From Rhizoclosmatium globosum (taxonomy: Eukaryota > Chytridiomycota > Chytridiomycetes > Chytridiales > Chytriomycetaceae): a stretch of DNA of 64,000 bases. This document shows, piece after piece, positions 3,038-32,915 of this stretch. The DNA is taken from contig MCGO01000050.1 in NCBI GenBank assembly GCA_002104985.1, positions 248,001-312,000 on the forward strand. Direction: 5' to 3'. The notes under the pieces are model-generated. The model had not been told where the DNA came from. It was given only the letters and a program-made list of their open reading frames with translations, and did not search any database. Both the position numbers and the translations under genes were made by a program. How positions within the stretch are numbered: position 1 is the stretch's first letter; every line of letters begins with the position of its first letter.

Positions 3038-5845
3038 ATGAAAAACAAAGCACAGAAAAAAAAGATGGAAGAATACAAAACAAAGTACATCCGGTCCCTT
3101 GAAGAGCGGCTGGTTGCGGCAGCAGCACTCCGGGCGGAAGAAGGAAAAGCAGCTGCTCTGCGCATTGAAGCAGTGACACTGGCAGCCACGGCGCGTCAGC
3201 TTCGCACGCAACTTGAACGCAGTTTAAGGGAAGCAAGCGGTAGTGGTAGTGGTGGTAGTAGTAGTAGCACAAGTATCAATGGAAACAGCCTTATCTCAGG
3301 TGTGTATTACTTTACTCTGTTTGTTCCAGTTAGAAGCATCAGATAGCAGAAGCAGTTGTTGCTAAGCAGTCAGCACCTTCTCACGTCCCACCCAACTAAT
3401 CCTCCCCTTCCAAAACTCAATCCACCAACACAGTTCCACCACCGCCTCAGTTGTCCGTGCACACTGAAGCGGTTCTTCTCGCAACCTTCGAATCGGATTC
3501 TGAACATGCTTTCGACCCCCATCCTGCGGATGAACCTATCACTGCAAATACCGCAAACTCGTCATCAAAGAATGCAAACCCAACAACAACTGCACTTCCA
3601 ACACCGTGGCTAGTTATCCTGCGCAAACTCTATCCAGGCCAAATATCTCACTTACGTCCACACCACCGCCAGCTCATTGACCATGCTGTGCACGAAGAGT
3701 TCCTTGTCCCACGTATGGGCCGTGATGCTGCCCAAACCATGCTGGGAACTACCTCTACTGCAACAGCCTACTACGCTATCCCCCCTGATTTGCTTGAAGA
3801 GTTTGATGATTGGTTTACCCTTAAGATGGACGAACTGATTTCATCAGATGACTTCTCAATGAAGACATCACGCAGAAAGTCTGCCCCTGTTTCAGCTTCC
3901 TCTTCCACTGGGCCCTCCCCGCCCACGAAAATATCTTCATCTCACCAGCAAAATCAAAATAATCATCAAAACGTATCTTCTTCGTCTTCTTCCGCAAACA
4001 CTCAATCTCGTCGTGTCACTATCTCTCATCTGGATTCTGAATTTCAACGGAAACCATCTCCTTTGTCGTCCATGCAGTTCTCGTCATCTGCAGCTTCCCG
4101 CGATCGAACTTCTTCTTCGGCTTCCTCGTCCAAGCCAAAACATCAGTTTCCTACAAAAGATGGTTCCATTATCTATTCCGTGGCGCCTCGTGCTACTCTT
4201 CCGGATGGCTCTCCCAATATTGAAGGATATCGTCCGTGGACCGACGTGATTCGCTCAAAATATCCCACCTTCAACAAGGCCGGCTCTCACATGTGCCGAA
4301 CTGCTGGAAGTTTCTTGGTAAGGGTTTCATTCAATGGTCATCAATGCACTGAGGCAGGGGCGTGAAGGTGGTGGGACTCTGATAGGATTGGGAACACAGT
4401 TTGACACAAATCGTGTACACGTCGGCCAAGAAAAATACCCTCTGCACTCTTTTTATTCCTTGAATCTCATTTCTTTTCTTCTCGTAGGAACTCAAAAAAA
4501 TTAAGAAAATATCAATGGCGGCGCAAACTTCTGCACGGTCCTCCAAGCCAGCATTCTGTTTGCCTGAAGAATATCAGAAAGAGTTTCTGGAATTTATGGA
4601 TGCAACTTTCTTCCACGATGGCCAGTTTGGACGCGAGGAATCTCATCTTGCCGGATATAGTTATGCCTCCAAAGGGAAAGACTCGTCGTCATCCGAGGAA
4701 GATGAGAAAGGAAATGCGGAGGATGACGAGTATGAAGATGGAATGCAGGTGGATGAAGACGAGGACGAATTGTCACCACCTCGTGCCTCTACGTCCTCCA
4801 CTTCCGCTCGTCGTGATCGTAATGATGTCGAAAATCGAGACACCAGAAGCCAAAACAAGCAAAGCCAAAGTATGGAACCAACTCCTGAGCCCCTTGGTTC
4901 GTTGTCAACTGGAAACCAGCCTGTCAATGAACACGATTGGAAAGAGTGCCTTCTTGATACACAGCGCGAATACCTTAAGCAGCAGAGCCGAAATACGAAA
5001 TTACTTCTTCATATGCGTCAACTAGTGAACAGTTTCTTACGTTCCTTACATCGACGCAAATCACCCAATTATGGGGAAGCAGAAGGTGATGAAGATTTCG
5101 GCGATGAAGAATCCACTACATCTGTCGTTCCAAGCGAAAGCATAACTGAGTTTCAAGAGTGGTTCGAACGGGGTATTCAAGAAAATTTCGGCTTGCCTAT
5201 TGAAGCGATGGATGTGAACATCAGTACAGGTTCACGATCTTCAAGAAGTCCTCGACGACGTGCTTCAGCAAGTCCACAGAGACGAAGCATGACGGCTTCA
5301 CCTGCCCGAAAACAGGAACAACTAGCGAGACGTTCTCCATTTGAGGTTTCTGACTCTGTGGCGAAAAGAGTCAAGATTAATGATTCCGGAACCGCTGAAT
5401 CGTCTGGCTCGGCTATTAATCCAATTGATGATGGTACAAACGGACGCCGGTCGTCAATGACAGAAGGTTCAATGGCATCCTCATCGTCAAGCAAGTACAT
5501 CACCAAGTCCGGATACAAGTTGACAAAATACAACAGGTACGCATCCAAATCCCCTTTCAAAAACAAAAATATACCAATCTAAATATACACACCCTTAAAA
5601 ACAGCATTTTTGTCAAACTGATGCCAGAATTCAAGTCTCTGTCGCGAGATGCAAGAGTGGCGATTAAGAAGGGTGTGAAAATGTTTCTACAGCAGGAGAT
5701 GGGTGACAAGTTTTCAGAGTGTGTATTTACAGTGGATGGGGCGGATCATCATACTTATGGTGTGCCAGAGCATTTGTTGGCGGAGTTTACGCAGTGGGGG
5801 CGTACGGAATTGAAGCGTTGCTTTCCGGATAAGGCTGTTGCTTAA
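3038..5845 (+). CDS. Coiled-coil protein with four copies of the novel EFxxW module
   Basis: Four exons: 3038-3299, 3434-4317, 4488-5536, 5605-5845; about 811 residues. The N-terminus has the motif TKYIRSLEERL followed by an Ala/Glu/Arg coiled coil to about residue 70, then Ser/Gly linkers. Four divergent copies of an unrecognised module follow: about 145-222 (WLVILRKLYPG ... YYAIPPDLLEEFDDWF), 356-425 (WTDVIRSKYPTF ... LPEEYQKEFLEFM), 533-624 (poorly conserved, ending in VPSESITEFQEWF) and the C-terminal 732-811 (LMPEFKSLSRDARVAIKKGV ... VPEHLLAEFTQW ... CFPDK). Copy 2 is preceded by LPDGSPNIEGYRPW, a stretch shared with the gene at 8668. Arg/Ser-rich patches (RSSRSPRRRASASPQRR) suggest a nuclear protein. 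No zinc finger is seen, unlike its relatives. Function is not known; a regulator that multimerises through the coil is inferred. Confidence 0.8.
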
Positions 5846-6255
5846 GTTGTTGGTTGTTTCAAAAAGGAATAAACCGGGAATGTGTTTTCGATACAAAAAA
5901 CAAACAACAAACGACGAATGAGGAGCAAAAAGGAGATTGTAAGAAAACAGCCCACAAACTTTCCTATCTTGCAACTGGCAACCCTTTGACGCGATAATAG
6001 TTGAAATTCTTGGGGAGCAATTGTTGAGAGAGTTTTCATGTGGGACCTTCCCTCACTGTACCACCACGGCAACCCTGAACAATTTGATGCTCATGAGGTG
6101 AGGAGACAGGCTTGGAGATACCTGTTGTTCTTTTGATAACTTCAATGTTATTTAAGGTTTGCCAAGATTATTTCATTATTTCCTCTGACGTCAAAGGCTA
6201 CTAACTGCTATTCAGAAAAAAACAACAAAACAACTGAGACAATAATGATGAATTC
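5846..6255. other. Convergent intergenic region
   Basis: This 410-bp AT-rich spacer lies between the 3' ends of two convergent genes. Apart from the poly(A) hexamer near its left end I see no convincing coding or RNA feature; short open frames on the minus strand look random. Confidence 0.6.
5868..5873 (+). terminator. Poly(A) signal of the 3038-5845 gene
   Basis: AATAAA lies 23 nt after the stop codon. Position and hexamer fit a polyadenylation signal. Confidence 0.5.
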
Positions 6256-8541: not shown

Positions 8542-8667
8542 TGGATGGTGCGCGAGTGGTGGGAGACAACAAAATTCACGGAGTTTCTTGGTTTCGCGAT
8601 TCCCACACCATCACTCAAAGTCAAAGTGTCCAAAAAGATATATTATATATATTTCGAAATTAAAAAG

Positions 8668-11126
8668 TCAAAGACGACTTTCAGGGAAAACCTGCTGAAT
8701 TTCTCCGCGTGCCCATGTTGTAAACTTTTCCACAAGAGGAGGTGGAACGAGATATGTTGGACTTTGTCCACTGATTATATATACACACTCCGTTTGGAAC
8801 CTGTCCCCCATTTCTTGTTCCAAAAATCTTTTTACACCACGCTTCAAAGCCTTTCGCGATTCATCAGACAGCTGTTTGTAGTCTGGTATCATCTTTTTGA
8901 TGATGCTGGAAGTTGGTAGTAGTCAATTAGATCAACGTAGAAAATTTAGAGACAAAGGGAAAGCTTACTTGATATACTTTGTATACCCAGACGTATCTGG
9001 ATTCACATCCGGCACGCCATTCGAATTTTGAGAGACAGGAGACTTAGTTCTTGAGGGAGACTTGACTCGAGAAGGGGATTTGTTTCGGCTAGGGGACTTG
9101 CTCTGTGCAACGCTCCCAAAATCCAAATTCGAGGCTGATCCAGAATTCATCACACTATCGAGAGCAGTGATGTCATTTTCCAACAAGTCTCCTTGATCAC
9201 CCTCCATGGGACTACCGAAATCATCAATCTTTCCGTCTTCATCGTTCTCTCCCGCATCCTCTTCTTGGTTTTCATCACCAGCATCGTCTCCAACAGCGTC
9301 TTCCCAACCAGAAGCACCATCACCACCATTACTCTCATCACCCTTATCACCCCCGTCGCCACCGCCACCACTACCACCCCCATCACCATTCATCCCACCC
9401 TCCTCGCTCTTCATACCATCCGGCTCCTCCCAATCCGGCACCATAAACTTCAAAAACGCAATATGAAGCCTCTCAGGGATCGCATATGTAACACTCGAAT
9501 GGTGCTGCCGCGCGTTGCTCTGTGGGATCAGCCGGTATTCGCGCACAGCGTGTAAACGCTTGAACTTTGTCACGCGGACACCCGTGGCTGGGATGATTTC
9601 GATGCCAGGGATTTGGAAGCGGAGAACGTCGCACCAGGCGCGCCAGCGTTCGGTGTTTGCGGTGCCGTCGGGGAGGAGTGGGTGTGGCTCGCATGGGTAC
9701 GTGAGAGGAAACGTGGATGGGTCGTACGGTGGGACTGGTAGTGGTGGCGGTGGTGGTGGAGATACGGATTTTGTTGATACATTTTTTGAAGCTGATGAGG
9801 TGGATTTGCTGTTGCTATTGCTCGGGTCTTCAGATGGTCTTTGCTGGCGACCTATGGGGCTTTTGAGAGCACCACTTGTGCGTCTGGAGCTGCTGGATTC
9901 TCTGTTCTTGCTGACAGAAGATGGCTTTGCAAACACTTTTGGAGACGAGGAGCTACCACGATTCGGATCAAATATTGACTTGACTGCTGCCGAAGCCTTT
10001 TCACACTTCATAATGTGTTGCATCCACTTGGCCTTGTTGTTACTTGGAATAATCATGTTGCAGTGATTGCAGTAGATCTTTCTTCCGATTCCAACACCAG
10101 TTTTCTTGACATGGTGATTAATCAGAGACTTCACGTCTCCATCAGTCTCGACTTCTGCGTCGTCAGCTTCATCCCCACCAGCAGCATCCTCATCGTCACT
10201 TTCCTCATTTTCATCCTCCTCTTCTTCATCTACCGCTTTGTCTTGCCCGTCATCGCTTTCAGAAGCATCTGGATCAAACTGGAGTCTAACCGCTTTTGGA
10301 GCCTCAGTACAGGTAACCAAATGCCGAATCCAGCGGCTTCTGTTACGGCTAGGAATAACAACGTTACAGTAGATGCACGTAATAATTCGGCTCGTCCCAG
10401 TGCCTTCTTTTCTCATATGCTCGTCAATAGGGTGTCCGTCACGATTACTATTTGAGATAGTGGAGCTCGTTGGATTTGGGAAAGTAGCAGAATTAGACGA
10501 GGATTGCTTTTGGTTATAAAACAGATTGACTGGTGCGGTTGTTGAGGAGGAGGAGGATGTTTCGTGCTTTGGTTTTTTCGCTACTCCCCCGCCATCTGCG
10601 GCAGAACTCGGATTCGGGGAGACTGGGGTTGAGTTTACCGAGCTTTGTTGATTTCTTGTGCGTTTGAGCGGGTGGGTGAGAGTAACTGGGGCAGATGAAT
10701 TGAGTGCGGGCGAAGCGTGGGAGACTGAAGACGGTACTGTCGGCTTACGCTCAGTTCCGCGAAATGTAGAAGTAGGAGCTGTGCTACTGGGACGTCCTGC
10801 ATGGTATTGGCGATTGAGTTAATAACTAGTATGTGTTGATACAATTAAAAATGCATACCCCCTTGTTGCTGAAGATCTGGTGGCCCTCTACGCACATTAG
10901 AAGTACTACTAGACGATGTTGATGCTTTGTGAGTAGTACCAGGCGTGGCAGATGAACGGTCAGTTAACTGGTTCTGTAACTGGTCAATCTCTTCTCTCAG
11001 GGTGGCCACCAACGTCTCTGAGGCACGAAGCTGATTAATTAGATCCCGATTCTTTTCAGCGAGATTCAGTTTCTCCTCGAGGACAGCTATGTACTTTGTC
11101 CGCAATTCGCTATCGTTCTTGTTCAT
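8668..11126 (-). CDS. Coiled-coil, twin C2HC zinc finger and EFxxW-module protein
   Basis: Three exons: 11126-10859, 10796-8969, 8905-8668; about 777 residues. The N-terminus carries RTKYIAVLEEKLNLAEKN and a coiled coil to about 60. Two similar zinc knuckles of pattern C-x2-C-x14-H-x4-C occur at about 228-252 (CIYCNVVIPSRNRSRWIRHL) and 330-355 (CNHCNMIIPSNNKAKWMQHI), resembling BED or C2HC fingers. An acidic Asp/Glu stretch separates them. Module copy 1 lies at about 474-550, preceded by LLPDGTANTERWRAW. Module copy 2 forms the C-terminus from about 699 (KMIPDYKQLSDESRKALKRG ... VPPPLVEKFTTW). An RNKSPSRVKSPSR repeat lies just before it. The C-terminal module is on its own exon, as in the genes at 3038 and 28875. 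Nuclear regulator is inferred. Confidence 0.8.
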
Positions 11127-11671: not shown

Positions 11672-13129
11672 TTGAAAAATGACGCAACCCTGGGAATGGA
11701 GATGGATAACTCCAAAAGTTGCACCGAAATGTCATCGCCTGACTCCGGGGCCGTCCACTGCAGCCACGAAGGATGCACTGAAGTCTTCGAGAGCAAGAAG
11801 GCAAGGAAGGAACACACATTCCAATACCATTCCAGTCCGTCAATCACTTATCGGGACCAGCCGACATCCACAGGTGATTAGCTGTTTTCCCAGCCCCCCC
11901 TCTTTTCTTTTGCTTCGTTGGTATCGGAAAGCCGGAACACTTAAACACAACCCTTATCCGCCTCCGCTCTAACTCTTCAACCATCCCACCACCATAAAGT
12001 AGTCATCACTAGACATTGCGACGGTTTCCTCTATTGCCCTTGCAGAAAGTACAAGGTCCGAACAGTCGGTGCTCTTAAGCGACATGCCAAAAAGTGTCCT
12101 GGTTTCCCAGTTCCAGATCCACCTGCCGCTCCCCAAGTCGACCTTCCCAACAAGTGCGCTGCCCCAGGATGCTTCCGCAGCTTCCACACAAGGAATGCAC
12201 TCGCCGTACATCTGTATGAGTACCATTCAAATCCCAAAGTGTTCTACCTCGGTCAATCCCAATCAACGGTTATTGAAAGGGATGCAGACCGTTACCTCCA
12301 TTGTCGTTGTGGAGGTTATAGTGTGTTGACAACCGCTGCAATCTTGAGACATGCCCGGACATGTATGGGGATTCCTGGATCTGGAGGCAGCAATAGCGAT
12401 GAAAGCAGGATTGGCAGCAGAAATGATTATGATCGGACTGACTCGCTTCGACGAAGGAGTCAAGCACAAGCTTCAAAACGAAGGAAGGCAGATGACGAAA
12501 ACGGGATAGGGAGCAGCAGCCGTAGTGGAGGTGTGGAGTATAGACTTCCCGAAGTTCTGTCGGTTCAAGGGAGAGGCGAATCACCATCATCTGGAAGCTA
12601 CAATTCAATTTCCTCTTATTCTCACTATGCTGGAGGGAGCTCTTTCTTTTACGACCAAGTTTCGTCGTCGACTTCTGTGCCACACTTCAATGGATCGGTT
12701 TCGTCAATTACACCACCCAATCCGCCACATCCATATTTAAGCCAAGTACCACCTGTATTCTTTAGTCAAAGACACCATGACCATCCTCATCTTTCTCTTC
12801 CAATTCCTCAGCCTCAAATAATTGGTTCGGCCCATGTGCATTCAGTACACACTCAAGAACAAGCCCACCAAGTACAAAATCCAATTCAGCCTTATGGCGA
12901 GCTCACTGCAACCAACGAAATTCGATCTCCTGCATCGTCGTCTATATCATATGCATCCAATCCCCCGTTTGGGTTTGTTCCTGGTGTTTCCAGTATTGCT
13001 GGTGCCATGCAGCCATCCTCCTCACAGTTTGAACAGCAAACAACGCAAGCGCCAGACCTCCAGACTCAGCCGATAATGTTGTCGGATACAACAATGTTCA
13101 ATTATCTGAACCTTACCTTTGAATCATAA
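11672..13129 (+). CDS. Paired C2H2/C2HC zinc-finger protein
   Basis: Two exons, 11672-11873 and 12000-13129; about 443 residues. It carries two finger pairs. Pair 1 is a C2H2 finger at about 24-50 (CSHEGCTEVFESKKARKEH) followed by a short-spaced finger beginning LYCPC and ending RHAKKC. Pair 2 begins CAAPGCFRSFHTRNALAVH and is followed by LHCRCGGYSVLTTAAILRHA ending in C. The rest is Ser/Gln/Pro-rich and the protein ends SDTTMFNYLNLTFES. It is an inverted paralogue of the gene at 13945-14940: both share the SCTEM start, both finger pairs, the intron position and the end motif. The coiled coil and EFxxW module of neighbouring genes are absent. Sequence-specific DNA binding is plausible from the fingers. 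Confidence 0.8.
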
Positions 13130-13148
13130 CAAATGATGATAATAATGA

Positions 13149-13154
13149 AATAAA
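13149..13154 (+). terminator. Poly(A) signal of the 11672-13129 gene
   Basis: AATAAA lies 20 nt after the stop, only about 20 bp from the 3' end of the convergent MED11-like gene. Confidence 0.45.
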
Positions 13155-13172
13155 GCAATAGATATACATAAT

Positions 13173-13907: not shown

Positions 13908-13944
13908 TTTAATGGAAGGGAAAGGAGAGAGAACTATTCTTTAT

Positions 13945-14940
13945 TTAATTTTCAAACTTAAGATTAAGTAATTCAAACATTGCCGTATCCGAAACTGTAA
14001 TTGGTGGCTCTTGCCTTGCCTGCTGGCCTCCCCCTTCCAACACGGGAAAACCGCTTTGCGTTAACGTATTGTTCGGCAGAATCTCAGGCAGAATCTGCGG
14101 ATGAACAAACGTTTGCCAGCTTCCGAGTGATTCAAACGTTCTTTCCAATGTGGAAGCTGATGCCATTGAAATACCATCATTCCTCTCTTGAAACACTCCA
14201 AATTCATTCCCTCCCCCCAAAAAGGCTTCAAAGTTTCTTTTTCTTGTTCTAGAGTCGTTGGTATAGAACCCAGGAATCCCATAACAATCCCGGGCGTGAC
14301 GTAATATCGCTGCCGTAGTCAGAACACTGTATCCACCACAAGGACAGTGTAGATACCGTTCATCATCACGTTCAATCACTGTAGGATCACTTTGCCCTTT
14401 GAAATATACTTTTGGATTGGAGTGAAATTCATAAACGTGTACAGCGAGGGCATTACGTGTGCTATAACTTCTTGCACAGCCTGAAACCGTGCACTTGTTG
14501 GGATGTTCAGTTGGCTCGACGGTTGGCGTTAAAGATGGATCCGGAAAGCCTACACATTTTTTCGCATGTCGTTTGAAGGCTCCAACTGTTCTTACCATGT
14601 ATGTATTGCAAGGACAATACAAGTATGTGTCGCTATTTCTAGAGATGACTATCCATAAAGGAGAACCGGAGCGGAAGGATGTTAGAATTTTTTTTGGACC
14701 CTTCCGGACATAAACGAGCTCCTCACCAATTGGATTTGATTGTCCATGGAAAGTGATTGACGGACTGGAATGGTACTGGAATGTGTGTTCCTTCCGCACT
14801 TTCTTGCTCTCAAATACTTCTGCGCAGCCTTCATGGGTACACGGAAAGTTGGATGGTGAGGCCATTTCCGTGCAACTTTTTTTTGATCCTTCTATTGCAT
14901 CTCCTTTTTTGGTGATAAGGGTCTTAAGGTTCGATTTCAA
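13945..14940 (-). CDS. Paired C2H2/C2HC zinc-finger protein, inverted paralogue
   Basis: Best model is two exons, 14940-14727 and 14648-13945, giving about 305 residues. The 78-nt intron (14726-14649) has GTGAGG..ATAG ends, sits at the position of the intron in the paralogue at 11672, and is in frame, so an unspliced reading of 331 residues is also open. Finger pair 1 is CTHEGCAEVFESKKVRKEH plus LYCPCNTYMVRTVGAFKRHA ending in KKC; pair 2 is CTVSGCARSYSTRNALAVH plus LHCPCGGYSVLTTAAILRHA ending in RDC. The C-terminus ends SDTAMFELLNLKFEN, as in the paralogue. The middle linker is shorter than in the paralogue. Nuclear DNA binding is inferred. Confidence 0.8.
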   Translation of the reverse strand: MKSNLKTLITKKGDAIEGSKKSCTEMASPSNFPCTHEGCAEVFESKKVRKEHTFQYHSSPSITFHGQSNPIGEELVYVRKGPKKILTSFRSGSPLWIVISRNSDTYLYCPCNTYMVRTVGAFKRHAKKCVGFPDPSLTPTVEPTEHPNKCTVSGCARSYSTRNALAVHVYEFHSNPKVYFKGQSDPTVIERDDERYLHCPCGGYSVLTTAAILRHARDCYGIPGFYTNDSRTRKRNFEAFLGGGNEFGVFQERNDGISMASASTLERTFESLGSWQTFVHPQILPEILPNNTLTQSGFPVLEGGGQQARQEPPITVSDTAMFELLNLKFEN

Positions 14941-15163
14941 ACTTCTAAGAGTTAGAAGTATTGGGAGCAGCCAGAAGTATCGTTAGTGAATGTCGGCACA
15001 GTGATAAGTATCCAGTTTCAGAAGATGTCGTGGGATGGACGGAAGCATTTTAAGTGTGAGTGTCCGCACGACCACTGCGCGGAAATCTTTTGGTACTCAC
15101 CATGACCCTCATTCCTCACGTCCTTCATAAACTCGGGCTTCTCAAAAACTCAACTTTATTCCT

Positions 15164-16340: not shown

Positions 16341-17898
16341 ATGGATCCTATTCAAGTGCAAGTGCAGGAAGGAGAAGTAGCAAGTCTACGGCAGCGGGTG
16401 TCCGAGCTTGAAGCGGCCCTAGCTGAAGCCCGATCTGTGATTGCTGAATGCAAGTGCAAGTGTGCCACTGGTGGAGCAACACCAACAACTGCCCTGGGCC
16501 TGGATACTCTGCAATCATCCTCTTCTTCAAACACTGTCACAGAACACACAAACTGGCTTGCACTTGTTCGCCGCAAATACCCGCACTTCAAAACCTCGGG
16601 TCCAGACTACCCGCCAATCAAGGCTGCCCTCAGAGCATTCCAAACAAAACACAACCTTCTTCCGCCTCAGGGCTCAAAACAAGGAAGCTCAAAGGTCCAT
16701 TCAATTCCACCGCATCTGCACTCGGAATTCCTCAGTGTTGTTGAACGGGTTGCCAATGCACACTTGTCTCGCCCTCAATCTCCAATGAACCCTTCCATAA
16801 CTCAACAACCTGAAGATCAACAAGAAGAACAAGAAGTGGACGAAATTCCTCCCTCGAAAAAGCTCAAATCTGAAATATTCATGTGCCCGGAAAAAAACTG
16901 CCATCGAACAGAACCATTCGAAACGTACAATCGTCTTGTCAGCCACCAATCAATGTATCATGGAGCTCATACAACAGTTACCTTAAGGGATGGAACGGAT
17001 ATTGGTGAGCGTGCAGTTTTCTTGGCAACAATGCACTCAAATTACCCAAATTGCAGTTGTCAAAAGAAATGCCGACCACAAGCTTCTTTGTCCAGCATGC
17101 CAAGTTGGTATTCGAGCTTCTAACCAATTTGCAAAACATGCTCGGGAATGTCAAGGCGATTTGATTCCCTTAATTCCGCTCTCGCCAAATTCTACTTCAC
17201 GGACGTCAACAACTCCTGCACCAACACCATCAGCTCCCACAACATCAAACTCAACTACTACCCCCCGTCCCACGCCTCAAACAGACACACTCCCGTGGCT
17301 CACCCTCCTACGAACTCTTGACCCCTCCATCCGCGCAACAACAGCCTCATCCACATACCGTGCAGCCCAACGATACGCCTTCCAATTCCGCCGCCTCCAC
17401 TCCCTAGACATCTCAAACCGCGTCGCCGTCTCCATCCCAAAACACTTACACGCCGAATTCTGCACCGGCGTCACTCGAGTCCTCCTCGAAAAGGGAATCC
17501 ACCTCAACAAGAACGCGGCGTCATCCATCTCCACCAACAATCCCGGCAACACCGCCTCGTCTTCTTCGTCGTCGTCAAGTACCTCCTCCCCAACACCTGC
17601 ACCAACACAAGAAATCGACATGACAGACCGCGTTCACTACGAAACCCTGTTAAAGGACGTTTTATCGACATACCCTGATCTCTCGCCAGACTACAAGCTC
17701 GCCATCAAACGAGGTGTTGTTGCGTTTTTGGAGGAGCAATTGGATGAAGCGCAGGTTCAGGCGTGTGTTTTCGGTGGTGGTGGTGGTGGTGATGTGGAAG
17801 AAGTTGGGGATGTTTTTGTGCCGTGTTATTATATGGAGGAGTTTATTGAGTGGGTGCGGGATCAGTTTGTTGCTTTGGGGTTGTTGGATGCAGAATAA
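16341..17898 (+). CDS. Coiled-coil, paired zinc finger, three EFxxW modules
   Basis: Two exons, 16341-17004 and 17057-17898, about 501 residues. N-terminal coiled coil (VASLRQRVSELEAALAEARS). Module copy 1 at about 71-140 (WLALVRRKYPHF ... SIPPHLHSEF). A finger pair follows: C2H2 at about 181-207 (CPEKNCHRTEPFETYNRLVSH) and a second beginning LLCPACQVGIRASNQFAKHA and ending in C at about 233-255. Module copy 2 is at about 299-370 (WLTLLRTLDPSI ... SIPKHLHAEF). Copy 3 is C-terminal, about 415-501 (YPDLSPDYKLAIKRGVVAFL ... YYMEEFIEWVRDQF) with a Gly run inserted in its middle. The order module-fingers-module-module differs from the neighbouring family members. Nuclear regulator inferred. Confidence 0.8.
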
Positions 17899-21690: not shown

Positions 21691-24090
21691 TCACACCACC
21701 CTTCTTTTCTTTTTATTGATTTTAGAGTTTGGGAAACATCGTTTGAATTCACGGACAGCCCATTCCCGAAACATAGGCTCCAAGTTCAATGGAAGCAAGT
21801 ATGTTGGCCCGTCTCTCTCAAACCGCAGCGCTTCCTCTTCTTTTCCACCAAACTGTTCCACCAGAAACATTTTGACTCCAATCCTGACGGCTCCTTTTGT
21901 TGCATCAGGGAGGTTTTCAAAGTCCGGCATAATATCAACCATCAGATCCTCAGAATCAAGAGTGTCTTCAATAACAATTCCCGCATCTCCTTCTTCCATA
22001 ACTTCTTCTTGCTCCTCTTCTTGCTCTTCATCTGGTTCTTCATCAACTAAATATTCTTCCGTTTCATCGTATTCAAACACATCTTGACCCCCATCTACAG
22101 CCCCCGATTTCTCCACCACCACCGACATATCACTCTCCTTTCCTTTCCCATCCTCCACAACAGCTTCTACTTGCTCCATCCCACTCAACATCCCACTCTC
22201 ATCCAGAAACTCCACAAACTCAGACCCCCGATCTGTGGGTACACCAAGCACATATTCCCGCTTCCCAGTCCCAACCAACATACTCAAACACAGAATTGGC
22301 ACAATATCATGAAACTGGAAAAACCGACGCACAGTCATCATAAAGGAGCCCCCGGGGTCTATATACCGCGCAAGATCAGCCGGCGGGACTCTGTACCCAG
22401 CATGCAACAAAACTTCGGGCCACGGCGTTCGCGGCCCGGCAGTCCAATCGTCAAACGTGCAGATTTGGGCGTGTCGACGGAGACTGATTGCACCGGCAAA
22501 AGAGTCGTTGCAGAGACAGTATAAACGGGTATCGGCGCGGCGGCGGGATTCGATAATGTAGGTTTCGTCATTGAGTTTGTGTTTGACAGGTATGTAGGTG
22601 TCGTGGACGTCGGTTTGATGTTTTTTGAGGGCAAACTCGTTTTTGTAGAATTTCGTGTGGCCAGGGCATGAGGATACTGGACAGCTTAAGGGGACTGTTG
22701 AGATGGCATTTGGGGAGGATGAAGATGGGGATGATGCTGGTGGGAGAGCTGAAGGGGTAGGAATAGTAGGCTTTGATGGTGGTTGCTCTGAATTACTTGA
22801 TATGGTTGGACTTTTATCATCAGCTTCCAAGAGTGGACTATGTTGTTGTCGTGCATCTTTGTTTTCATGAATAAGACTCCGTTTCCATCTCACTCCACAA
22901 GCGTTGCAAAGGTCACTACCAGCTGGGCCAGAACGCCAAGCTGGCGTTTCACGGGTTCCACATTGAATGCAGGAGCGAACTATTTGGACAACAGGGTCTG
23001 GAGACTCTGAGTGAGACAAAGGGGAATTCGATGAAGTAGAAGAAAATGAGCGCTTTGGTTGAGGAGGAGAAGGCTCTTTTGGTTGAGAAGGCATAGGGTG
23101 CGTTGTCAAAGGTGATGATCGAGATGGTGAGGGTGCCGATGAAGCAGAAGAAAGAGAACGTTGAGGAGGAGAAGGAGCAGAAGTAGAACGAGGAGACGAG
23201 GAAGTAGGATGCAGACAGGTGTCCGAAATGGCAGGTTGCCTTAGTTGTTGCATATTTGCACTAGAAGTCGGGATTGAAATCTGCGGTTTCATGGACTTTT
23301 GTTTCCCAGAACATTGATGCGCATGAGTACGAAAAGCTGAAGACTGATGTGTGGTGAATATCTTGCAAGGACAGGTAAGGAGCCCGTTTGACAGGCGAGG
23401 AATATCTGCATGTCAAAAGGTTAGCGAATTCACCAGAACAGAGCAAATGATGAATTCACCTTTTATACTGCCATCCTTGAAGGAAACACGGACTTGACGC
23501 AAGTGGAATTCGTGCTGGTGAGTGAGAAGAGAGCTTGCAGAGGCAAACGCCTTGTCCGCCAGTTGACAGTTAACTTCTTCGCATTTGAATTCCGATGAGG
23601 TCTTAATTGTGGCAGGATTCTGAGGCGGGCCCGTTTTTGGACCCGAGTGTCGCTTCTCAGGCAGACCCTGCAAGGCACGGATTTCATCAAGCGACAGGCC
23701 TGGAGCGCCTGAGTTTGACGGCGTTGGTCTTCGCCGAGAAGCTGATGCTGCGGATGGTGTCGTTGAAGTGGATGCTGAAGAGTCCGAGATTGTGGCCTTC
23801 TTTGCCTCGCTTGCACCTGGATCACTTGCACTCGACACACCACTAGGAGCACTGCCACTAGGAACACTAGGAGCACTAGGAACACTAGGATCTCCACTAG
23901 GAACAGCCTCGGACCCGCCAATCACCGCCCTGAGGCTCTTGACCTCCGCCCGCAGCACCTCAACCCGCTCTCTCAGCCGCCGCTCAGTCGCCCTGCATTC
24001 AATCTGGTGTCCCTTGGCTGCATTCTGAAGGAACTCAATCTGGAGCAGCGCTTCCTTGAGCGTCGTCGGTCGAGGAAGCGTGATTGACAT
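21691..24090 (-). CDS. GATA factor with paired zinc fingers and EFxxW modules
   Basis: Two exons, 24090-23460 and 23405-21691, about 781 residues. Domains in order: coiled coil (LKEALLQIEFLQNAAKG ... RERVEVLRAEVKSLRAVI, about 10-60); a finger pair at about 168-241 (CEEVNCQLADKAFASASS and a second starting LTCPCKIF); a GATA finger at about 360-385 of type C-x2-C-x17-C-x2-C (CIQCGTRETPAWRSGPAG followed by LCNACGVRWKR); a second finger pair at about 453-525 (CPVSSCPGHTKFYKNEFALK, then LYCLCNDSFAGAISLRRHA); module copy 1 at about 540-620 (WPEVLLHAGYRV ... EFVEF); an acidic stretch; and the C-terminal module at about 703-776 (MPDFENLPDATKGAVRIGV ... MFREWAVREFKRCFP). The GATA fold predicts binding to GATA sites in the nucleus. 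Upstream neighbour 24152-26134 ends 61 bp from this start. Confidence 0.85.
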
Positions 24091-24151
24091 ACACCCTCTT
24101 CCTGCTTTTGCGGAAACAAATTGGATGAGAAGAAAAGTAACTAAAAGTACA

Positions 24152-26134
24152 TTATTCGTGCGGCATATATTCGGGAAACACACGTAACAGTTCCGTTCTC
24201 AACCACTCTCTAAATTCCTCAGATATTGATTTGGGAACAAGGGGAAACATGTTTTCGCCTGCTGATTTTCGTTCTTCACAGCCCTTGACGCAAAATTCAA
24301 GAAGTGCGCTGTTTGAGGTGATTGCATTGTTGAGGAATAGCTTGATTCCAACACACACTGCTTGTTGCTCAGATTCCTCCAGATTGATGAAGTTTGGCAT
24401 GATGCTGCAAACTATCTTGAACGAACGTAACATTTCTCCTCCTACTTCATTCACTTTCATCCTTTCTTTCCCTTTCCGGCTTTTTGTCTGTTCGACAAGA
24501 TGGTCATGATCCATGTCATCGCATCCACATTCCTCATCACAAACATGTTCTTCTCCTTCTTCTTCTTGTTCCTCATCTTCCTCGCTATTCTCTTCTTTTA
24601 TCCCGTCACTCACATCATCTTGACCTTCCGCATCATCTTCCTTCACAAAAACCTCCTCGTTCTCCGCCTCTTCTACTTCTTCTTCTCCTTCTCCTTCTCC
24701 TTCTCCTTCTCCTTCTCCTTCTCCTTCTCCTTCTCCTTCTCCTTCTCCTTCTCCTTCTCCTTCTCCTTCTCCTTCTCCTTCTCCTTCTCCTTCTCCTTCT
24801 CCTTCTCCTTCTCCTTCTCCTTCTCCTTCTCCTTCTCCTTCTCCTCCTCCCGCGTCATCATCAGATTCGCCTCTTTTCAGAACACACCCACGAACATGCG
24901 TGTCAAACGATTTCCTGTATTTATACACCTTCCCACACGTCGGACACGTTGTTATATCCTTCTCACTCCCTCCTCCACTACCACTACTCCTATAACTACC
25001 CCTATCCACACCATTCCTATTATTACTCAGCACAGTTCCTGATGCACTCGGCGTCGAAGGAATGTCAACCACTCCACCACCACTCCTCCGCATCGACCGT
25101 TTCCGTTTCAATTCGCCGGACGCTGATCCGTCGCCGTCGTTTAGGGTGGATGGGTGTGGGTATAGAGAGGGAAGGATTTTGTGTTGGGCGGTGCGACAGG
25201 TACGGACGTGGGAGAGGAATGTGTCCGGTTCGGCCCAGTAGTAGGTGCAGAAACAGTGGAAGTATCCGTTTTGCCAGTAAAAGTCGTGTGTTGTTGCTTT
25301 GTCGGGAAGAGTTACTCTGCAGTGTTGGTATGAGAGGACTGTGTGAGTTCCTGGGAGAGTTGGTGGTGGTGGGGGAGCTTGGTTTGGAATTATTGATGAA
25401 TATGATGATGATGATGCAGGTGGTGGTGGTGGCGTTATCGACTTTGTTATTGTTGTTGATGCAGTTACTGTTGATGTTGAAGAAGATGAAGAAGCAGAGG
25501 GACGTGACTTTTTGAGTTTCTGGTGTGAAAGGGATAACGACATTCGTTTCTTGTTGGTGCGAGTTGGAAGTGGTTGGAATACATCGTCATCGCTGTCGGC
25601 CACGACTTGTTCTTTTTGATCAGATTGAGGTTGATGATGTTGAGATTGAGGCTGAAGGGGAGGAGCATGATCAGCAACCAACTTTGTGAGTGGCCGTGAG
25701 GTTGAGACAGAAAAATAGTCTGTTATTGTCTTTGAAGTTGGACTGGGTGTTTGGATAACCTTGTCCTTCTCTTTCGACTTTGTCCTGCGACCTCCTGAGG
25801 ATGTATGAACATATTGAGTTGCGGTAGAGGTAGTGGCAGTGAGTGTACAAGTATTAGTATTAACATTAGTAGTAGTATTAGTATTAGTAGCAGTACTAGT
25901 TGCGGTTGGAGTAGGCGGAGGAGCTGATGATGATGATGATGATGTTGATGAGGTGGATTGAGTTGATTGGAGCGAGATCGGAGCTGCCACAGGTGCTTTC
26001 AATGCCGCAACTTCTGCGCGAAGTAATTCAACCTCATTTCGGAGTCGCTTGTTTTCAGCCTCGAGAGCCTCGTTGGTCGCTGACAGCACTTTCACGCATT
26101 GCAACCGCCAATCTCCGCCAGTTTCATCACCCAT
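24152..26134 (-). CDS. Coiled-coil, zinc finger and EFxxW-module protein with (GE)n tract
   Basis: Single exon, 660 residues, ATG at 26134. It has an N-terminal coiled coil (ALEAENKRLRNEVELLRAEV, about 20-45), then a long Ser/Thr/Pro region containing TITDYFSV. Two Cys/His knuckles follow: about 282-304 (YFHCFCTYYWAEPDTFLSHV, ending in RTC) and about 383-405 (CPTCGKVYKYRKSFDTHVRG followed by C). A Gly-Glu dipeptide run of about 30 units lies at roughly 416-480, then Asp/Glu-rich sequence with a HVCDEECGCDDMDHDH patch. The C-terminus is one EFxxW module (SIMPNFINLEESEQQAV ... ISEEFREWLRTELLRVFPEY). The first half of the upstream finger pair appears eroded. Nuclear regulator inferred from the family. 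Confidence 0.8.
   Translation of the reverse strand: MGDETGGDWRLQCVKVLSATNEALEAENKRLRNEVELLRAEVAALKAPVAAPISLQSTQSTSSTSSSSSSAPPPTPTATSTATNTNTTTNVNTNTCTLTATTSTATQYVHTSSGGRRTKSKEKDKVIQTPSPTSKTITDYFSVSTSRPLTKLVADHAPPLQPQSQHHQPQSDQKEQVVADSDDDVFQPLPTRTNKKRMSLSLSHQKLKKSRPSASSSSSTSTVTASTTITKSITPPPPPASSSSYSSIIPNQAPPPPPTLPGTHTVLSYQHCRVTLPDKATTHDFYWQNGYFHCFCTYYWAEPDTFLSHVRTCRTAQHKILPSLYPHPSTLNDGDGSASGELKRKRSMRRSGGGVVDIPSTPSASGTVLSNNRNGVDRGSYRSSGSGGGSEKDITTCPTCGKVYKYRKSFDTHVRGCVLKRGESDDDAGGGEGEGEGEGEGEGEGEGEGEGEGEGEGEGEGEGEGEGEGEGEGEGEGEGEGEGEEEVEEAENEEVFVKEDDAEGQDDVSDGIKEENSEEDEEQEEEGEEHVCDEECGCDDMDHDHLVEQTKSRKGKERMKVNEVGGEMLRSFKIVCSIMPNFINLEESEQQAVCVGIKLFLNNAITSNSALLEFCVKGCEERKSAGENMFPLVPKSISEEFREWLRTELLRVFPEYMPHE
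24670..24845. repeat. Hexanucleotide microsatellite (TTCTCC)n coding (Gly-Glu)n
   Basis: About 175 bp of near-perfect CTCCTT/TTCTCC hexamers on the + strand. On the minus strand they encode alternating Gly and Glu in the neighbouring finger protein. The period of six keeps the frame when copies are gained or lost. The + strand frames give meaningless Phe-Ser or poly-Leu. Confidence 0.95.
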
Positions 26135-26186
26135 TTGAGCACAAAACGAATAAATTAATTATTAGAACTGATTCTTGAATCAAATC

Positions 26187-27359: not shown

Positions 27360-27454
27360 CTTAACGTTGAGTGTGGGGGATTTGAAAAGGGCGGGTTACT
27401 CAAGAGAAGAAAAAAAAGAAGTAGAGCTGAGCAAATTTCCATTTATTGCATCTT

Positions 27455-28438
27455 CTACTTCCTCCACTTAATATCATACACTGGCGCTGGCGTCAATACA
27501 CACTTCTGAGCAACAGGATCCCAATTCGATTGAATCAAGAATTTACCCATACTACCCAAATCGACATTAAACGGTGGACCATCCTTTTTCAATGTCTTGC
27601 ATCCATCATAAAACGTTGCACATTTATCCCCATTCTCATTCCCATTTGCATCATACCACGCCCCATATGCATTCGTAACAGTCTCCGTCAATTCATGCGC
27701 GAAAGAATCAATCAACGCGTCTGTCAACCGGTCCCCATTCACACTAAAACTCTCGTCGGCAGTATGTCTCAATGGACCTGGAATACAACCATTCCACCCA
27801 TCGATATGACACCCGTACTCTCCCGTTCCAACGACAATATAATTAAACCCGTCATCGGACTTGTGATACCCACAATAGCTGTTGCAGATGGACGACCCGT
27901 TTCCACCGACTTGGATCTCGTTCACGTCATTTGACAGGACCAATGCGAATATATCTGTGAATGTGTTGTTGGTGGGCCATCCCTGTGACTGCATTGCCAT
28001 TGACAACAGTGCAGGTGCGTTGTAGATTGTTTTACCGCTCGTATACTTCATGTGCAACGATCCAGCCCATTCAACGTGTGTGGACGGGTGATTTCCTTGT
28101 GAGTCGTAGTATTTTAGTGTTGTTTTCCACCAGTCGCTTGTTCCGACTCCTTTTATAAAGTTTCCAAAGTGGGCGATGGCGGTAGATGTGAAATCGCCGT
28201 AGAATACCGTGTAGATTCGAACGCCATAATTCATAATGCTGCCGCCTTGATAGTACATGGGACCATAGTAAAGCTGATTTGCGTAGTCTGTGAAGTTAAA
28301 GACATTGTCGTCAGTTGTTTTGTGCCAACGTTTGAACCCATTTCTGAATCCATCGTTCCCGCTACTGGTGCATTGTACAAGCTGCAACACACTGCTCAAA
28401 AGAACGAGGAGCTGTATTTGAGGGCTGAGGAAATACAT
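27455..28438 (-). CDS. Secreted phosphate-induced protein 1 / EXORDIUM-like protein
   Basis: Single exon, 327 residues. A signal peptide (IQLLVLLSSVLQLVQC, residues 8-23) precedes the mature protein. PHI-1/EXORDIUM family features are visible in order: YYGPMYYQGGSIMNYGVRIY near residue 60, SDWWKTTLKYYD near 101, and the conserved AHELTETVTNAYGAWYD block near 248 followed by NENGDKC. Several cysteines suggest disulfides. The family is best known from plants, where members promote cell expansion, and is patchy elsewhere; the biochemical activity is unsettled. In this organism an extracellular or wall-associated role is the safest inference. No introns are needed, unlike most neighbours. Confidence 0.75.
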   Translation of the reverse strand: MYFLSPQIQLLVLLSSVLQLVQCTSSGNDGFRNGFKRWHKTTDDNVFNFTDYANQLYYGPMYYQGGSIMNYGVRIYTVFYGDFTSTAIAHFGNFIKGVGTSDWWKTTLKYYDSQGNHPSTHVEWAGSLHMKYTSGKTIYNAPALLSMAMQSQGWPTNNTFTDIFALVLSNDVNEIQVGGNGSSICNSYCGYHKSDDGFNYIVVGTGEYGCHIDGWNGCIPGPLRHTADESFSVNGDRLTDALIDSFAHELTETVTNAYGAWYDANGNENGDKCATFYDGCKTLKKDGPPFNVDLGSMGKFLIQSNWDPVAQKCVLTPAPVYDIKWRK

Positions 28439-28874
28439 GCGAGGGCTGAAACCGGTTGGTAATTGTCAGTTTTGGTAATCCCTCCTCCGAATCCTTTCAT
28501 TATCAGTCTGTCTTTGTATACACTGTTAATCCATCACAATACCACAACATTCATTTTTCCATGTCTCCTGAAGCCCAATTGTGTTCTTGTAACAAGAGAT
28601 TGGAAAATTTGCAGAAAACGAAACCCGAATTCAAAATCAATAAAGGAAAACATATAGCACTCGTTTATGACAAATAACTTAAAATAAACAACAACCTCTC
28701 TTCGCCTAAATAAGAAATCGTGCCGCCAAAAACCCAGCCCACCCCAAAATGAAAACGAGGAGAAAAAAATTTTGTACAAAACACACAAGCCATCCATCCA
28801 TCCCCCCACACATGGGGATACACATCTCACACCAAAAACAGGACTCCTACTCAACAATCTATTCCCACGGATCC
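28439..28874. other. Intergenic region
   Basis: This 436-bp spacer lies upstream of the EXORDIUM-like gene and downstream of the GATA/module gene (both minus strand). It has a CATC microrepeat near 28795 and no convincing gene; a 73-codon + strand frame at 28456 has no recognisable features. Confidence 0.5.
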
Positions 28875-31800
28875 TTAGAGTGCAATACGATTCCCTGGAA
28901 AATGTATATTCAACCTCCCGTAAGCCCACTCCCGAAACTCAGCCCTCAACCGTTCAGGAACCCCATACGTGTTGGGAATATCTTTTCCATTCCCTTTAAT
29001 AATACATAACGCGAGATGATCTGCCCCGCCAACTCGGGAAAGGAGGTACTCTTTCACTTCGCGCTTAATGACTGTCCGGAGTTCACGTGGGGCTGTACGG
29101 AATTCTGGCATCATGGATTGAAGGATTCTATTCATAAAAAATTAAGTAAGCCAACAGAATCATTCAGTGTTATGCAATATAAAACACTCACGCTGTGTAT
29201 TTCGTCATGGGTTGAGGAGGCGGAACAGCATGTTCAGCACTCAAGGCAGCAAGCTTTAACTGAGGAGGTGGAACAACGAGTCCATGTGGAGGGGGTGGAG
29301 CAACGGTAAAGGTTTTTGGCAACATGGACATTGGCACAGAACCTGCTGGCGAAACTGCCGTATTTGCAGATATTGATCGCACAGGAGATTGCTCGGTTCT
29401 GAAGATAATCGACGGTCTAACAACGCCACCTCCACTTCCAGCCACCGCAGTCGGCGTTGAAACACGAGCCGGAGAAACAATCTTCTCGCTTCCACCAACC
29501 ACACTCGAGACACCCACTGATGAGGTGGCAGGCGGAACAGGAGCTGAAGTTTGTTGTTGGACAGTATTCCTCTTTGCAGGAACATCAGCATCTGAGAAAT
29601 CATCCGGAACTGTACGGCCCTTCTCCTTCTTCTGCGCACCTGCGGTAGAAACCCTCTTCTCCTTCTCCTCTTCACCCTTTCTCTTTTTAGCTGCCGCATC
29701 TCCGCCGACAGATGCGCGTCGACTGCGTTTCGAAACAACCTCCGTCTCAACTTCCTGCTCAGTCTCGTCCTCATTCACATGTCGATCATCCTCCTCATCC
29801 TCCTCTAGATCCTCATCACTCTCCTCGTGCTCGTCATCATCATCAACATACTTGCTGGTTTGTTTCTTCTTCTTTGGTCCTACGGTATTACTTGGTTTAC
29901 GTCCTCGTTTGGAAACAGGTTTTGCTTTCACAGCAGCTGTACGACCCCCAATACTTGCACGCCGACCGCCGCGTTTAGAAACTGTAGCAGGCGGAGCCGT
30001 CAAAGCCGGAGGCGCGCTACCCCTCCTCGACCGCGTCGTCTTCTTCGAAATAACTTCTTCCTCACTTTCGTCTTCCACTGTGCCCACTTCTTCTCGCTCC
30101 TCATGTTCTTCCACCACCGGCTCAACCTCCACTCCTCTTTCTTCCTCTTCAACTCGTTCCTCCCCTGTAACCCCACGATTCTCCTCTCCTCCACCATTAT
30201 ACTCTCCCTCCCAGCCACCATCAAGTACACCGCCTCCACTAGAAGCACCACTTACGTCATACCCACGGTCTCTTTCGATCCGGTCGTCAACACCATCGTA
30301 CTCATTATCCCTCGCATTCACAGAATCACCAACTTGCTGACTAGCACCAACACTTCCACCACCGCTTCCAAACTCTGCTTCCGCAGTATGAACTGCAACA
30401 GCAGAAGGTTCTTGCGGCACAACATCGTTCCACATATTCATACTCAGCCTCGTGCTTCCTCCAGTCGACGACATCATGGACGAAGGTCGAGATGGTGGAG
30501 CCACATGAGTTGGGCTAGAGCCCCTCTCGTCACCTCCATTTGCATGGTCAAACTGCGGAATACGTTCGTGAGCCTGTGTGTGGTGTAACGAACTAGGTGC
30601 AGAAGCTGGTGTGCTTTCAGAGACGATTGGGATGGATGCTGGTGTGAATGGCGTTGAGGCAGCCGTGGACATGGCTGGACCAGGGACATTGTATGTCGAA
30701 ACTGATGGCAGTGTGATGGATTCTTGAGGATTTTGCAAATGCAGCGGTGTGGCCGGCTGAAAAAGCTGGGGTTCTTGTAGTTGTGGAACAGGTGGATTTG
30801 TATTTTGGGAAGGTGCAGTTGCGGGCGCAGGCGCGGATGGTACAGGTGCTTGAGGCTGAAGGTGCGAAACAGGACCAAACTGAGAACTACCAATCAGTGA
30901 TTGTGAACCCATCGAATACTGAGGTTGTTGCTGAGCAGCATTCAAAAACTGTTGTTGTTGTTGATGGTAATGAGCTTGCTGAAGTTGAAACTGTTGTTGC
31001 TGCTGTTGTGATGGAAATACACCCATTTGTTGGTGTTGCAGTTGGAATTGGGGATGAAGCAATTGTGGATAGTATTGCATTTGAGAAAATAATGCTGGAT
31101 CCATTGGTCCATGAAGCCCATTGATACCATAACCAGGAATCTGCGACAACTGATTTTGCAGTTGTACTTGCGACTCAGGGTTTCCTAAAGTTGCAGATTC
31201 GACGGCTTCAGCAGGAGACTGAAAGTCCTGCTCATTTTGTTGGGCTGCATTTTGCTGATCTTCTCTAGCACGAACGCGTCTCCACTTTACGCCACAAGCG
31301 TTACAAAGGTGACTCCCAGCTGGACCAGAACGCCATAATGGCGTTTCACGAGTTCCACAGTGACCGCAGAGACGATCTTCAGGGATACGCGACGGAGATT
31401 TACGCTGCTGTTGTTGTGATTGAGCTGGCGCTCTCTGCTGCATTGGTAGCTGTGGTGGTGGTTGTTGTGGTGGCTGCTGTGGTTGCATGTGTTGCTGAAG
31501 ATATTGCTGTTGATGCTGCTGCAAGTGTTGCTGTTGATGAGTTTGCTGCTGCTGGTGTTGTGATTGCTGCGTTTGGTGAAACTGTGATTGCGAGTTTTGT
31601 GGCTGTTGTTGATACTGAGATACAATTGGTTGTACATGAGCTTCATTCGTAGCATTAGTAGATTTGTTGGGTGGAAAGGCTCCGCGAACATTGTTACTTC
31701 CAGCGTTGTTATATTGATGCGCTAGTGGCAGAGAAAGAAGATGAATGAAAGAAGAAAATAATAGAGAATAAAAACTTACTTTGTTGGGAATGAGCAATTT

Positions 31801-32915
31801 TTTGCTGATGCTGAGGAAACTGAGCCATCGTTGTATGACTCGACTGGGTTGATGGACCAGATGGACCAGTGGAATCGGATAGGCCAGGTGGATTAGAGGA
31901 AGTCATGGGTAAAGGAGTAAACGAATTATTGGCAAAGTTATTTGAAGCACTCAGATTCAAACTGTTCAAGTTGCTATTTGAATTTGAAGTTGGCAAATTC
32001 ATTGCCGCCTTATTAGTGGATCGAGTAGTGGAAGCATTGTTGTTGGCAGCCGCGACAACTGATGTGTTTACAGTAGTAGATGAAGTAGCAGAAGAATGCG
32101 ACTGGTTAACACCAACCAATTCTTTTGCAGCAAAAATAAACTCGTCGACGGCACTTTGGGGCACAGCAAAGCACTCAGACTTGTTTGGATATTGACAGGA
32201 CACCTTCATTTTCTCAGCACGGTCTTTTCCGTAGCGAAACGAGAGAAATTTTCCAGCAAAGTCTTCGTAAAAGTCGAATTGGGAGTCGTGGAAACTCAGG
32301 GCAGGTTCCTTGTTCTTATCCTTTGCCTGGAATGCGAGTGGCCAGGGAATGAGACGTTCAACCTGCATTTGCTGGTGCTGCTGAGTTTGCTGTTGCTGCT
32401 GGGACTGAGGTGGTAGTTGAGGCGGTGGAGGTTGAGGGAGGGAAGACTGAGAGGGTGTCGAGTGCAGTGGAAGCATCATCTGAGCTGCATTGTACCAGAA
32501 CACATGAATACAAACTAACACGTCTTAATTCAAGCAAAAAGCACAAACCAGAAAGTGCAGCATTCGCAGCCTCGCTCAACGTTGCGCTCTGAACCGACAC
32601 GCTCCCAACATTCGCAGCCTTGAGCGCAGCCCGAAGTCCAGCTACTTCTCGGACAAGCGAAACTACATCGGCTGCGAGCTGCGATGCCCGGGCTTCTTCG
32701 CCACGAAGCCGGTCGGTCACAGCAACGCGTGTCTCGAGAAGTTGGACGTACTTTGTGTGGATGTCTGACTGCCCTTGGCCTCCTCCTCCTCCTCCTAGGC
32801 TTCCTCCTCCTAATCCAGATAAACTGCCTCCTACTTGCATACTGCCATGTATACTGCCACTGTGTGCTGATGCATTAGAGGGTGGTGCCGGTGCTGGTGC
32901 TGGTGGCCCCTGCAT
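28875..32915 (-). CDS. Large GATA factor with coiled coil, poly-Gln and two EFxxW modules
   Basis: Four exons: 32915-32549, 32484-31780, 31721-29192, 29127-28875; about 1284 residues. The N-terminus is Gly/Pro-rich, then IHTKYVQLLETRVAV starts a coiled coil to about 105, matching the genes at 3038 and 8668. Module copy 1 lies at about 155-240 (FYEDFAGKFLSFRYG ... AVPQSAVDEFIFAA). After a poly-Gln region comes one GATA finger at about 478-503 (CGHCGTRETPLWRSGPAG, then CNACGVKWRRV; C-x2-C-x17-C-x2-C). About 600 residues of Gln-, Pro- and Ser-rich and then acidic and basic sequence follow, including several SKRGRK-type nuclear-localisation-like patches. The C-terminal module on its own exon starts TKYTAILQSMMPEF and ends VPERLRAEFREW ... 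HFPGN. A nuclear GATA-site binding regulator is expected. Confidence 0.85.

What the first reader, a model, noticed from the sequence alone, without database searches (positions are those of the whole stretch)
3038..32915. Undescribed ~75-90 residue module in about 14 copies across six clustered genes
Six neighbouring genes share a domain I cannot match to a named family. Its C-terminal form reads roughly M-P-[DE]-F-x2-L-x4-R-x-A-I-K-x-G-V-x2-F-L, a variable loop with a short strand, then Y-x-V-P-x2-L-x2-E-F-x2-W-x3-E-L-x3-F-P. Internal forms start W-x3-L-R-x2-Y-P and end [IV]-P-x2-L-x2-E-F. By eye I count four copies at 3038-5845, two at 8668-11126, three at 16341-17898, two at 21691-24090, one at 24152-26134 and two at 28875-32915. 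The pattern suggests helix, strand, strand, helix. It is combined with coiled coils and zinc fingers, so a new DNA- or protein-interaction domain of transcription regulators is likely. The ending LxxEF...FP faintly recalls the BEN domain, but I cannot show homology.
Basis: partly seen in the sequence, partly recalled or inferred. Interest (0 to 1): 0.92.

Follow-up and report, generated by a model that had tools for sequence, protein, structure and literature searches.

The report
New domain in chytrid gene regulators
An aquatic fungus (Rhizoclosmatium) carries at least 25 distinct copies of a small protein building block that matches no catalogued family in our searches; it ends the six proteins studied here, several of which have zinc fingers, and it likely helps these predicted gene regulators grip partner proteins.

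Summary
The window is from the chytrid Rhizoclosmatium globosum. Profiles built from copies outside the window recover 12 of the 14 claimed copies; D1 and F1 are weak. The C-terminal form lies at 32 genome places, 25 distinct. Internal and C-terminal forms are one family (profile-profile E 8e-8; shuffles far lower). Models of each form show the same element order, though their alignments share four rows. Five genes examined carry an intron at the same base inside the C-terminal module. Pfam, NCBIfam, PHROGs and PDB searches place it in no family; BEN finds no support. One weak lead is the first half of the NF-YB histone fold (E 0.0073, 43 of 77 positions). Internal copies are mostly basic, C-terminal ones mostly acidic (p 7.6e-5), but 3 of the window's 6 C-terminal copies are positive. 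I read it as an uncatalogued accessory domain of a lineage-expanded family of likely zinc-finger regulators: C-terminal copies predicted to bind protein, internal copies to help contact DNA. No binding was tested. Distribution beyond the genus is undetermined.

The parts
3038..5845 (+). Gene A: N-terminal heptad-like stretch, four modules
   Evidence: ORFs and inferred splices; heptad score not significant for A (106 of 500 shuffles)
3601..3840 (+). Module A1 (internal form)
   Evidence: E 2.9e-5 / 2.2e-4 with outside-window profiles
4231..4613 (+). Module A2 (internal form), split by an intron at 4318-4487 (inferred)
   Evidence: E 4.8e-15 in the best of four candidate splices
4926..5189 (+). 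Module A3
   Evidence: E 1.6e-4 with the C-terminal profile, 93 with the internal one
5520..5842 (+). Module A4 (C-terminal form), phase-2 intron 5537-5604 (inferred, donor GTACGC)
   Evidence: E 6e-25; splice
8668..11126 (-). Gene B: N-terminal heptad-like stretch, two modules
9430..9651 (-). Module B1 (internal form)
   Evidence: E 1.2e-9
8671..8985 (-). Module B2 (C-terminal form) with phase-2 intron 8906-8968 (inferred, chosen from two candidates); modelled by AlphaFold2
   Evidence: E 4.7e-23; splice; model
16341..17898 (+). Gene C: N-terminal heptad stretch, bipartite finger, three modules; intron 17005-17056 (inferred)
   Evidence: ortholog P0002, 97% identical
16545..16766 (+). Module C1 (internal form), modelled by AlphaFold2
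   Evidence: E 9e-17; model
17287..17496 (+). Module C2 (internal form)
   Evidence: E 3e-10
17635..17880 (+). Module C3 (C-terminal form)
   Evidence: E 1.4e-11
21691..24090 (-). Gene D (P0001, 781 aa): N-terminal heptad-like stretch, two bipartite fingers, GATA finger, C-terminal module
22186..22431 (-). Possible module D1 (weak)
   Evidence: E 0.11, 0 of 200 shuffles reach it
21727..21948 (-). Module D2 (C-terminal form)
   Evidence: E 2.2e-17
24152..26134 (-). Gene E: N-terminal leucine-zipper-like stretch, C-terminal module
24164..24424 (-). Module E1 (C-terminal form)
   Evidence: E 2e-16
28875..32915 (-). Gene F: N-terminal heptad-like stretch, GATA finger, C-terminal module (whole exon structure not worked out)
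32108..32353 (-). Possible module F1 (not significant)
   Evidence: E 1.7
28878..29208 (-). Module F2 (C-terminal form) with phase-2 intron 29128-29191 (inferred)
   Evidence: E 4e-19; splice
11945..13129 (+). Neighbour gene with the family's bipartite finger but no module found
   Evidence: finger profile E 4e-12; not in the module hits that I could see
13945..14940 (-). Neighbour gene with the family's bipartite finger but no module found
   Evidence: finger profile E 2e-12; not in the module hits that I could see

Best explanation
Rhizoclosmatium globosum carries at least 25 distinct copies of a domain of about 60-95 residues that matches no catalogued family in our searches, and its C-terminal form is predicted to be a protein-docking or pairing module of likely zinc-finger transcription regulators. 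Anatomy: an N-terminal heptad stretch likely dimerises the protein; a GATA or bipartite C2H2/CCHC finger likely reads DNA; internal copies of the domain, mostly basic, would add DNA contacts; the last copy, more often acidic and at the very C-terminus, would bind a partner protein or a copy in another family member. The fold is predicted to be strand, helix, helix, a variable hairpin, strand and a final helix, with conserved Pro, Leu, Pro, Phe and Trp. Shown: the domain, its family, its places in this genome and the charge difference. Inferred from sequence: the introns. Predicted: the fold. Inferred: every binding activity.
For: Leave-window-out profiles; 32 genome places, 25 distinct; internal and C-terminal profiles match, hhalign probability 94.5, score 38.8, against at most 14.8 in 60 column shuffles; model of B2 with pLDDT 90.9 and of C1 with pLDDT 74 and the same element order; GATA fingers in D and F, E 2e-12 and 5e-13; a bipartite finger in many members; charge difference, medians -3 (n=25) and +4 (n=16), p 7.6e-5; dN/dS 0.09 to 0.76, five of six below 0.5, in the six near-identical pairs that differ of seven compared, from few differences and without a test; the last module ends within about 14 residues of the stop codon in 6 of 6 window genes.
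Against: No fold match that would tell the function. The charge rule has exceptions: 5 of 25 C-terminal copies are net positive and 3 neutral, and of the six in this window three are positive (A4, B2, F2); 3 of 16 internal copies are not positive. The heptad score is not significant for gene A and L072 (106 and 92 of 500 shuffles). Over its Pfam cut-off only GATA was found, in two of six genes, so 'transcription regulator' rests on that and on finger-like patterns. The two models are not independent (four shared rows).
Confidence: 0.43

Rival explanations
1. The module is itself a DNA-binding domain, in tandem copies like the repeats of TFII-I (analogy recalled), and each copy contacts DNA.
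For: Several copies per protein; 13 of 16 internal copies and 3 of the 6 C-terminal copies in this window are net positive; it keeps company with zinc fingers.
Against: 17 of 25 C-terminal copies are net acidic, down to -10, which is poor for DNA contact; the most conserved positions are Pro, Leu, Pro, Phe and Trp, not basic.
Confidence: 0.27
2. The C-terminal module is a far-diverged histone-fold domain of the NF-YB type, which would pair in a histone handshake.
For: A 23-sequence profile hits NF-YB6 at E 0.0073 and Oocyst rupture protein 1 at 0.068 in PDB, up from 0.21 and 0.18 with 6 sequences; hhalign score 30 against at most 19.9 in 60 shuffles; a short helix, then a 26-residue helix in the model.
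Against: Only 43 of 77 positions match; internal forms do not match; several copies lack the second half of the long helix; 5 of the 12 hits are other proteins (AAC/APH, UPF0254); the NF-YB family model finds 54 places in the genome, none of them a module; no histone fold in the 50 of 62 Foldseek rows shown. NF-YB was the best of 177,635 sequences, so the hhalign score is not independent.
Confidence: 0.12
3. The genes are remnants or domesticated parts of a mobile element, and the module is a transposase-associated domain.
For: Many dispersed copies, some near-identical on different contigs; a peculiar CCHC-type finger.
Against: Introns at a shared place, mostly diverged copies, open frames, and no transposase domain in the proteins scanned; near-identical pairs could be two haplotypes. 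Terminal repeats were not searched for.
Confidence: 0.08

Closest known systems
NF-Y subunit B (CBFD_NFYB_HMF histone fold)
   Same: First 43 of 77 positions align in register, including R-I-x5-P and the start of a long helix
   Different: No match in the second half; a hairpin stands where the histone fold has a short loop (recalled); short-helix copies exist; PF00808 hits no module
BEN domain (PF10523)
   Different: Not among the Pfam hits of 30 distinct copies; BEN is all-helical (recalled), whereas both models contain strands
SCAN, KRAB and ZAD accessory domains of expanded zinc-finger families (recalled)
   Same: Works like: one shared accessory domain in a lineage-expanded, clustered family of zinc-finger proteins
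   Different: No sequence relation found in the Pfam scans; the module occurs both inside and at the C-terminus; fungal, not animal
TFII-I (GTF2I) repeats (recalled)
   Same: Several copies of a roughly 75-residue domain in one regulator
   Different: The repeat is not among the Pfam hits

Membership tests
BEN domain | Sequence match to PF10523 | tested here: not met
   BEN is not among the hits at E up to 10 in 36 scans of 30 distinct copies (HMMER's filters drop most above 0.1); the own-genome search was empty but its controls were silent too
BEN domain | All-helical BEN fold (recalled) | tested here: inconclusive
   Both models hold strands; no BEN structure in the rows shown
NF-YB type histone fold | Sequence match to PF00808 | tested here: not met
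   54 places in the genome at E up to 10, none at a module (only best candidates are scored)
NF-YB type histone fold | Profile similarity over the whole fold | tested here: inconclusive
   E 0.0073 over 43 of 77 positions only
NF-YB type histone fold | Histone fold geometry | tested here: inconclusive
   Not in the Foldseek or VIA rows shown; absence there is no proof
GATA zinc-finger proteins | GATA finger over Pfam cut-off | tested here: met
   Genes D and F, 46.9 and 48.9 bits against 26.8; not found in the scanned ORFs of A, B, C, E
Accessory dimerisation domains of zinc-finger families (SCAN type) | Self- or hetero-association of the domain | not testable with these tools
   Needs purified protein or complex prediction

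The most novel reading that the evidence does not exclude
A domain with a fold not yet in the PDB, arisen or expanded in chytrids, that works as a pairing code: the acidic C-terminal copy of one regulator docks on the basic internal copies of itself or of a paralogue, so that about 25 diverged copies let the fungus assemble many regulator combinations.
Probability: 0.14. Interest if true: 0.78.

Novelty: new variant of a known kind. Interest (0 to 1): 0.52.

Why it matters
Many regulators of zoosporic fungi carry no annotation (my knowledge). A domain this common in one chytrid genome, placed in no Pfam family here and with a confident model that matches no solved structure well, gives a defined target: its structure, its partner and its spread across chytrids can each be tested. 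If it pairs, it would be a fungal counterpart of the accessory domains that built the large animal zinc-finger families.

Tried and rejected

Distribution: three searches of the large protein set returned one protein each: P0001 (gene D itself), P0002 (Rhizoclosmatium sp. JEL0117, 97% identical to gene C) and P0003 (an R. globosum paralogue on contig C413). They did not return genes A, B, E or F, so they are too insensitive to show absence elsewhere.

Coiled coil: a home-made heptad score on nine N-termini; C 1, P0003 4, E 6, B 15, L071 23, F 26, D 34, L072 92, A 106 of 500 shuffles reach the observed score. A tandem model of C2 and C3 was considered (alignment) but not run. Part of the output was cut.

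Rows left out before counts: the charge test used 25 C-terminal segments (three near-identical ones dropped, A1 counted as internal, tails outside the matched segment ignored) and 16 internal ones, without A3, D1, F1, near-identical copies and partial copies of L016, L059 and L060. The intron was examined only in five genes where I had noticed a TKY-like exon end.

Papers: searches gave no listing that describes such a domain; I saw search listings, and passages only of PMC8778642 and PMC12115818. A statement that it is unpublished would rest on these searches alone.

Full report
What the window is. It is a stretch of contig C367 of a 56.9 Mb genome in 420 contigs. The database names gene D as a hypothetical, GATA-type-domain protein of Rhizoclosmatium globosum, a chytrid fungus.

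Is the module real. By eye I took 15 pieces for 14 claimed copies (A2 is in two exon pieces). I then built two profiles only from copies elsewhere in the genome (22 C-terminal, 10 internal) and scored the window's copies with 200 shuffles each. Twelve of 14 are recovered; D1 is weak (E 0.11) and F1 is not significant (E 1.7). Reversed ORFs of the window (1,206) give nothing better than E 1.2. The outside copies had been found with window or related copies as queries, so the test shows consistency across the family, and the E-values and shuffles show that it is not chance.

How many. The C-terminal copy of gene A finds 24 places at E up to 10, the copy of contig C366 finds 27 rows, and a short-loop copy 20 rows at E up to 1. 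Merged by hand this gives 32 places; some are weak in a single search and rest on the iterated profile. Several are near-identical pairs or triples on different contigs (C135/C104, C68/C79/C9, C90/C150, C167/C323, C46/C411); 25 are distinct. They cluster: seven genes within 35 kb on C367, one of them just upstream of the window (L072), six places on C89 and three on C413. A query with an internal copy adds C212 and C27. The near-identical places may be two haplotypes; I did not test that. Of seven such pairs compared, one is identical and six have dN/dS of 0.28, 0.16, 0.19, 0.09, 0.76 and 0.47, from few differences; this suggests genes under constraint.

A correction to the anatomy. In genes A, B and F and in two genes outside the window (C413, C135), an intron of 48-68 bases cuts the C-terminal module exactly 8 bases after the start of a Tyr codon in [LMY]-[TV]-[KR]-Y. 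These are the five genes I examined. The introns are inferred; B offered two candidates and A has an unusual donor. For C413 the splice agrees with the deposited protein (P0003, shown). Spliced, the Tyr lies nine residues before the conserved Pro, where the internal form has its Trp. The shared intron place speaks for common descent of these five genes. The first residues of my B2 model come from that intron, a flaw of the model's N-terminus.

What it resembles. Pfam-A gives stray single hits only in 13 window copies and 23 C-terminal copies (six copies are in both sets), best E 0.022; NCBIfam none; PHROGs best 0.15. BEN gives nothing. Foldseek against PDB gives no E below 1.7 for the C-terminal model and 2.8 for the internal one. 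The one lead is NF-YB: 0.21 with six sequences, 0.0073 with 23. It covers the first helix, the loop and the long second helix only. Copies with a short second helix (for example on C90, C89, C377), no match by internal copies and the silence of the NF-YB family model at the module places make me keep it at 12%.

Company of the module. Genes D and F hold GATA fingers over the Pfam cut-off. Many members hold a finger of their own kind, C...C...H...H, a short strand, then C-x-C...H-A...C. A profile from four such fingers (C, two of D, L071) finds it, beyond its seeds, in L063, L061, L034, L062, L020, L032, L031, L072, L021 and L024 (E 3e-12 to 1e-3) and in two window genes that lack the module (11945-13129 and 13945-14940, E 4e-12 and 2e-12). 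In the proteins scanned Pfam matches none of these fingers over a cut-off (a CHORD match at E 0.0045 is below its cut-off). N-termini look like short coiled coils, but the heptad score is clear only for some.

How it may work. Internal copies are mostly basic (median net charge +4, 13 of 16 positive) and C-terminal copies mostly acidic (median -3; 17 of 25 negative, 3 neutral, 5 positive), Mann-Whitney p 7.6e-5. Within this window the six C-terminal copies split evenly: A4 +1, B2 +3, F2 +5 and C3 -10, D2 -3, E1 -2. The last copy is at the very end of the protein in 6 of 6 window genes. I infer from this that fingers and internal copies face DNA and that the last copy faces protein. No call tests any binding.

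Limits. The session held no other chytrid genome that I could search, and the protein searches were too insensitive to judge distribution: they missed paralogues that I know to exist. So 'found only in Rhizoclosmatium' is not claimed. 'Not in Pfam' is shown for the copy held here; 'new fold' is not claimed as shown, only that no good match was found.

Noticed in passing
11945-13129 (+) and 13945-14940 (-): Two neighbour genes share the family's bipartite C2H2/CCHC finger (about two copies each) but no module was found; no Pfam model passes its cut-off there, so it may be a second unlisted domain.
   Followed up: partly
L072 (C367:242000-248000, just upstream of the window): A seventh gene of the cluster, with heptad-like stretch, internal modules, finger and C-terminal module.
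   Followed up: partly
2267-2800 (-): Homeodomain gene (PF00046, E 7.5e-10) next to gene A.
   Followed up: no
27455-28438 (-): Protein with a phosphate-induced protein 1 (Phi_1) domain, E 4e-19, inside the cluster.
   Followed up: no
about 24640-24860: Long simple repeat coding for Glu-Gly repeats in gene E; other frames are open too and give artefact ORFs.
   Followed up: no
C135/C104, C68/C79/C9, C90/C150, C167/C323, C46/C411: Near-identical gene copies on different contigs, perhaps uncollapsed haplotypes or recent duplications; the pair C90/C150 is identical in the C-terminal module but more diverged upstream (dN/dS 0.76).
   Followed up: partly
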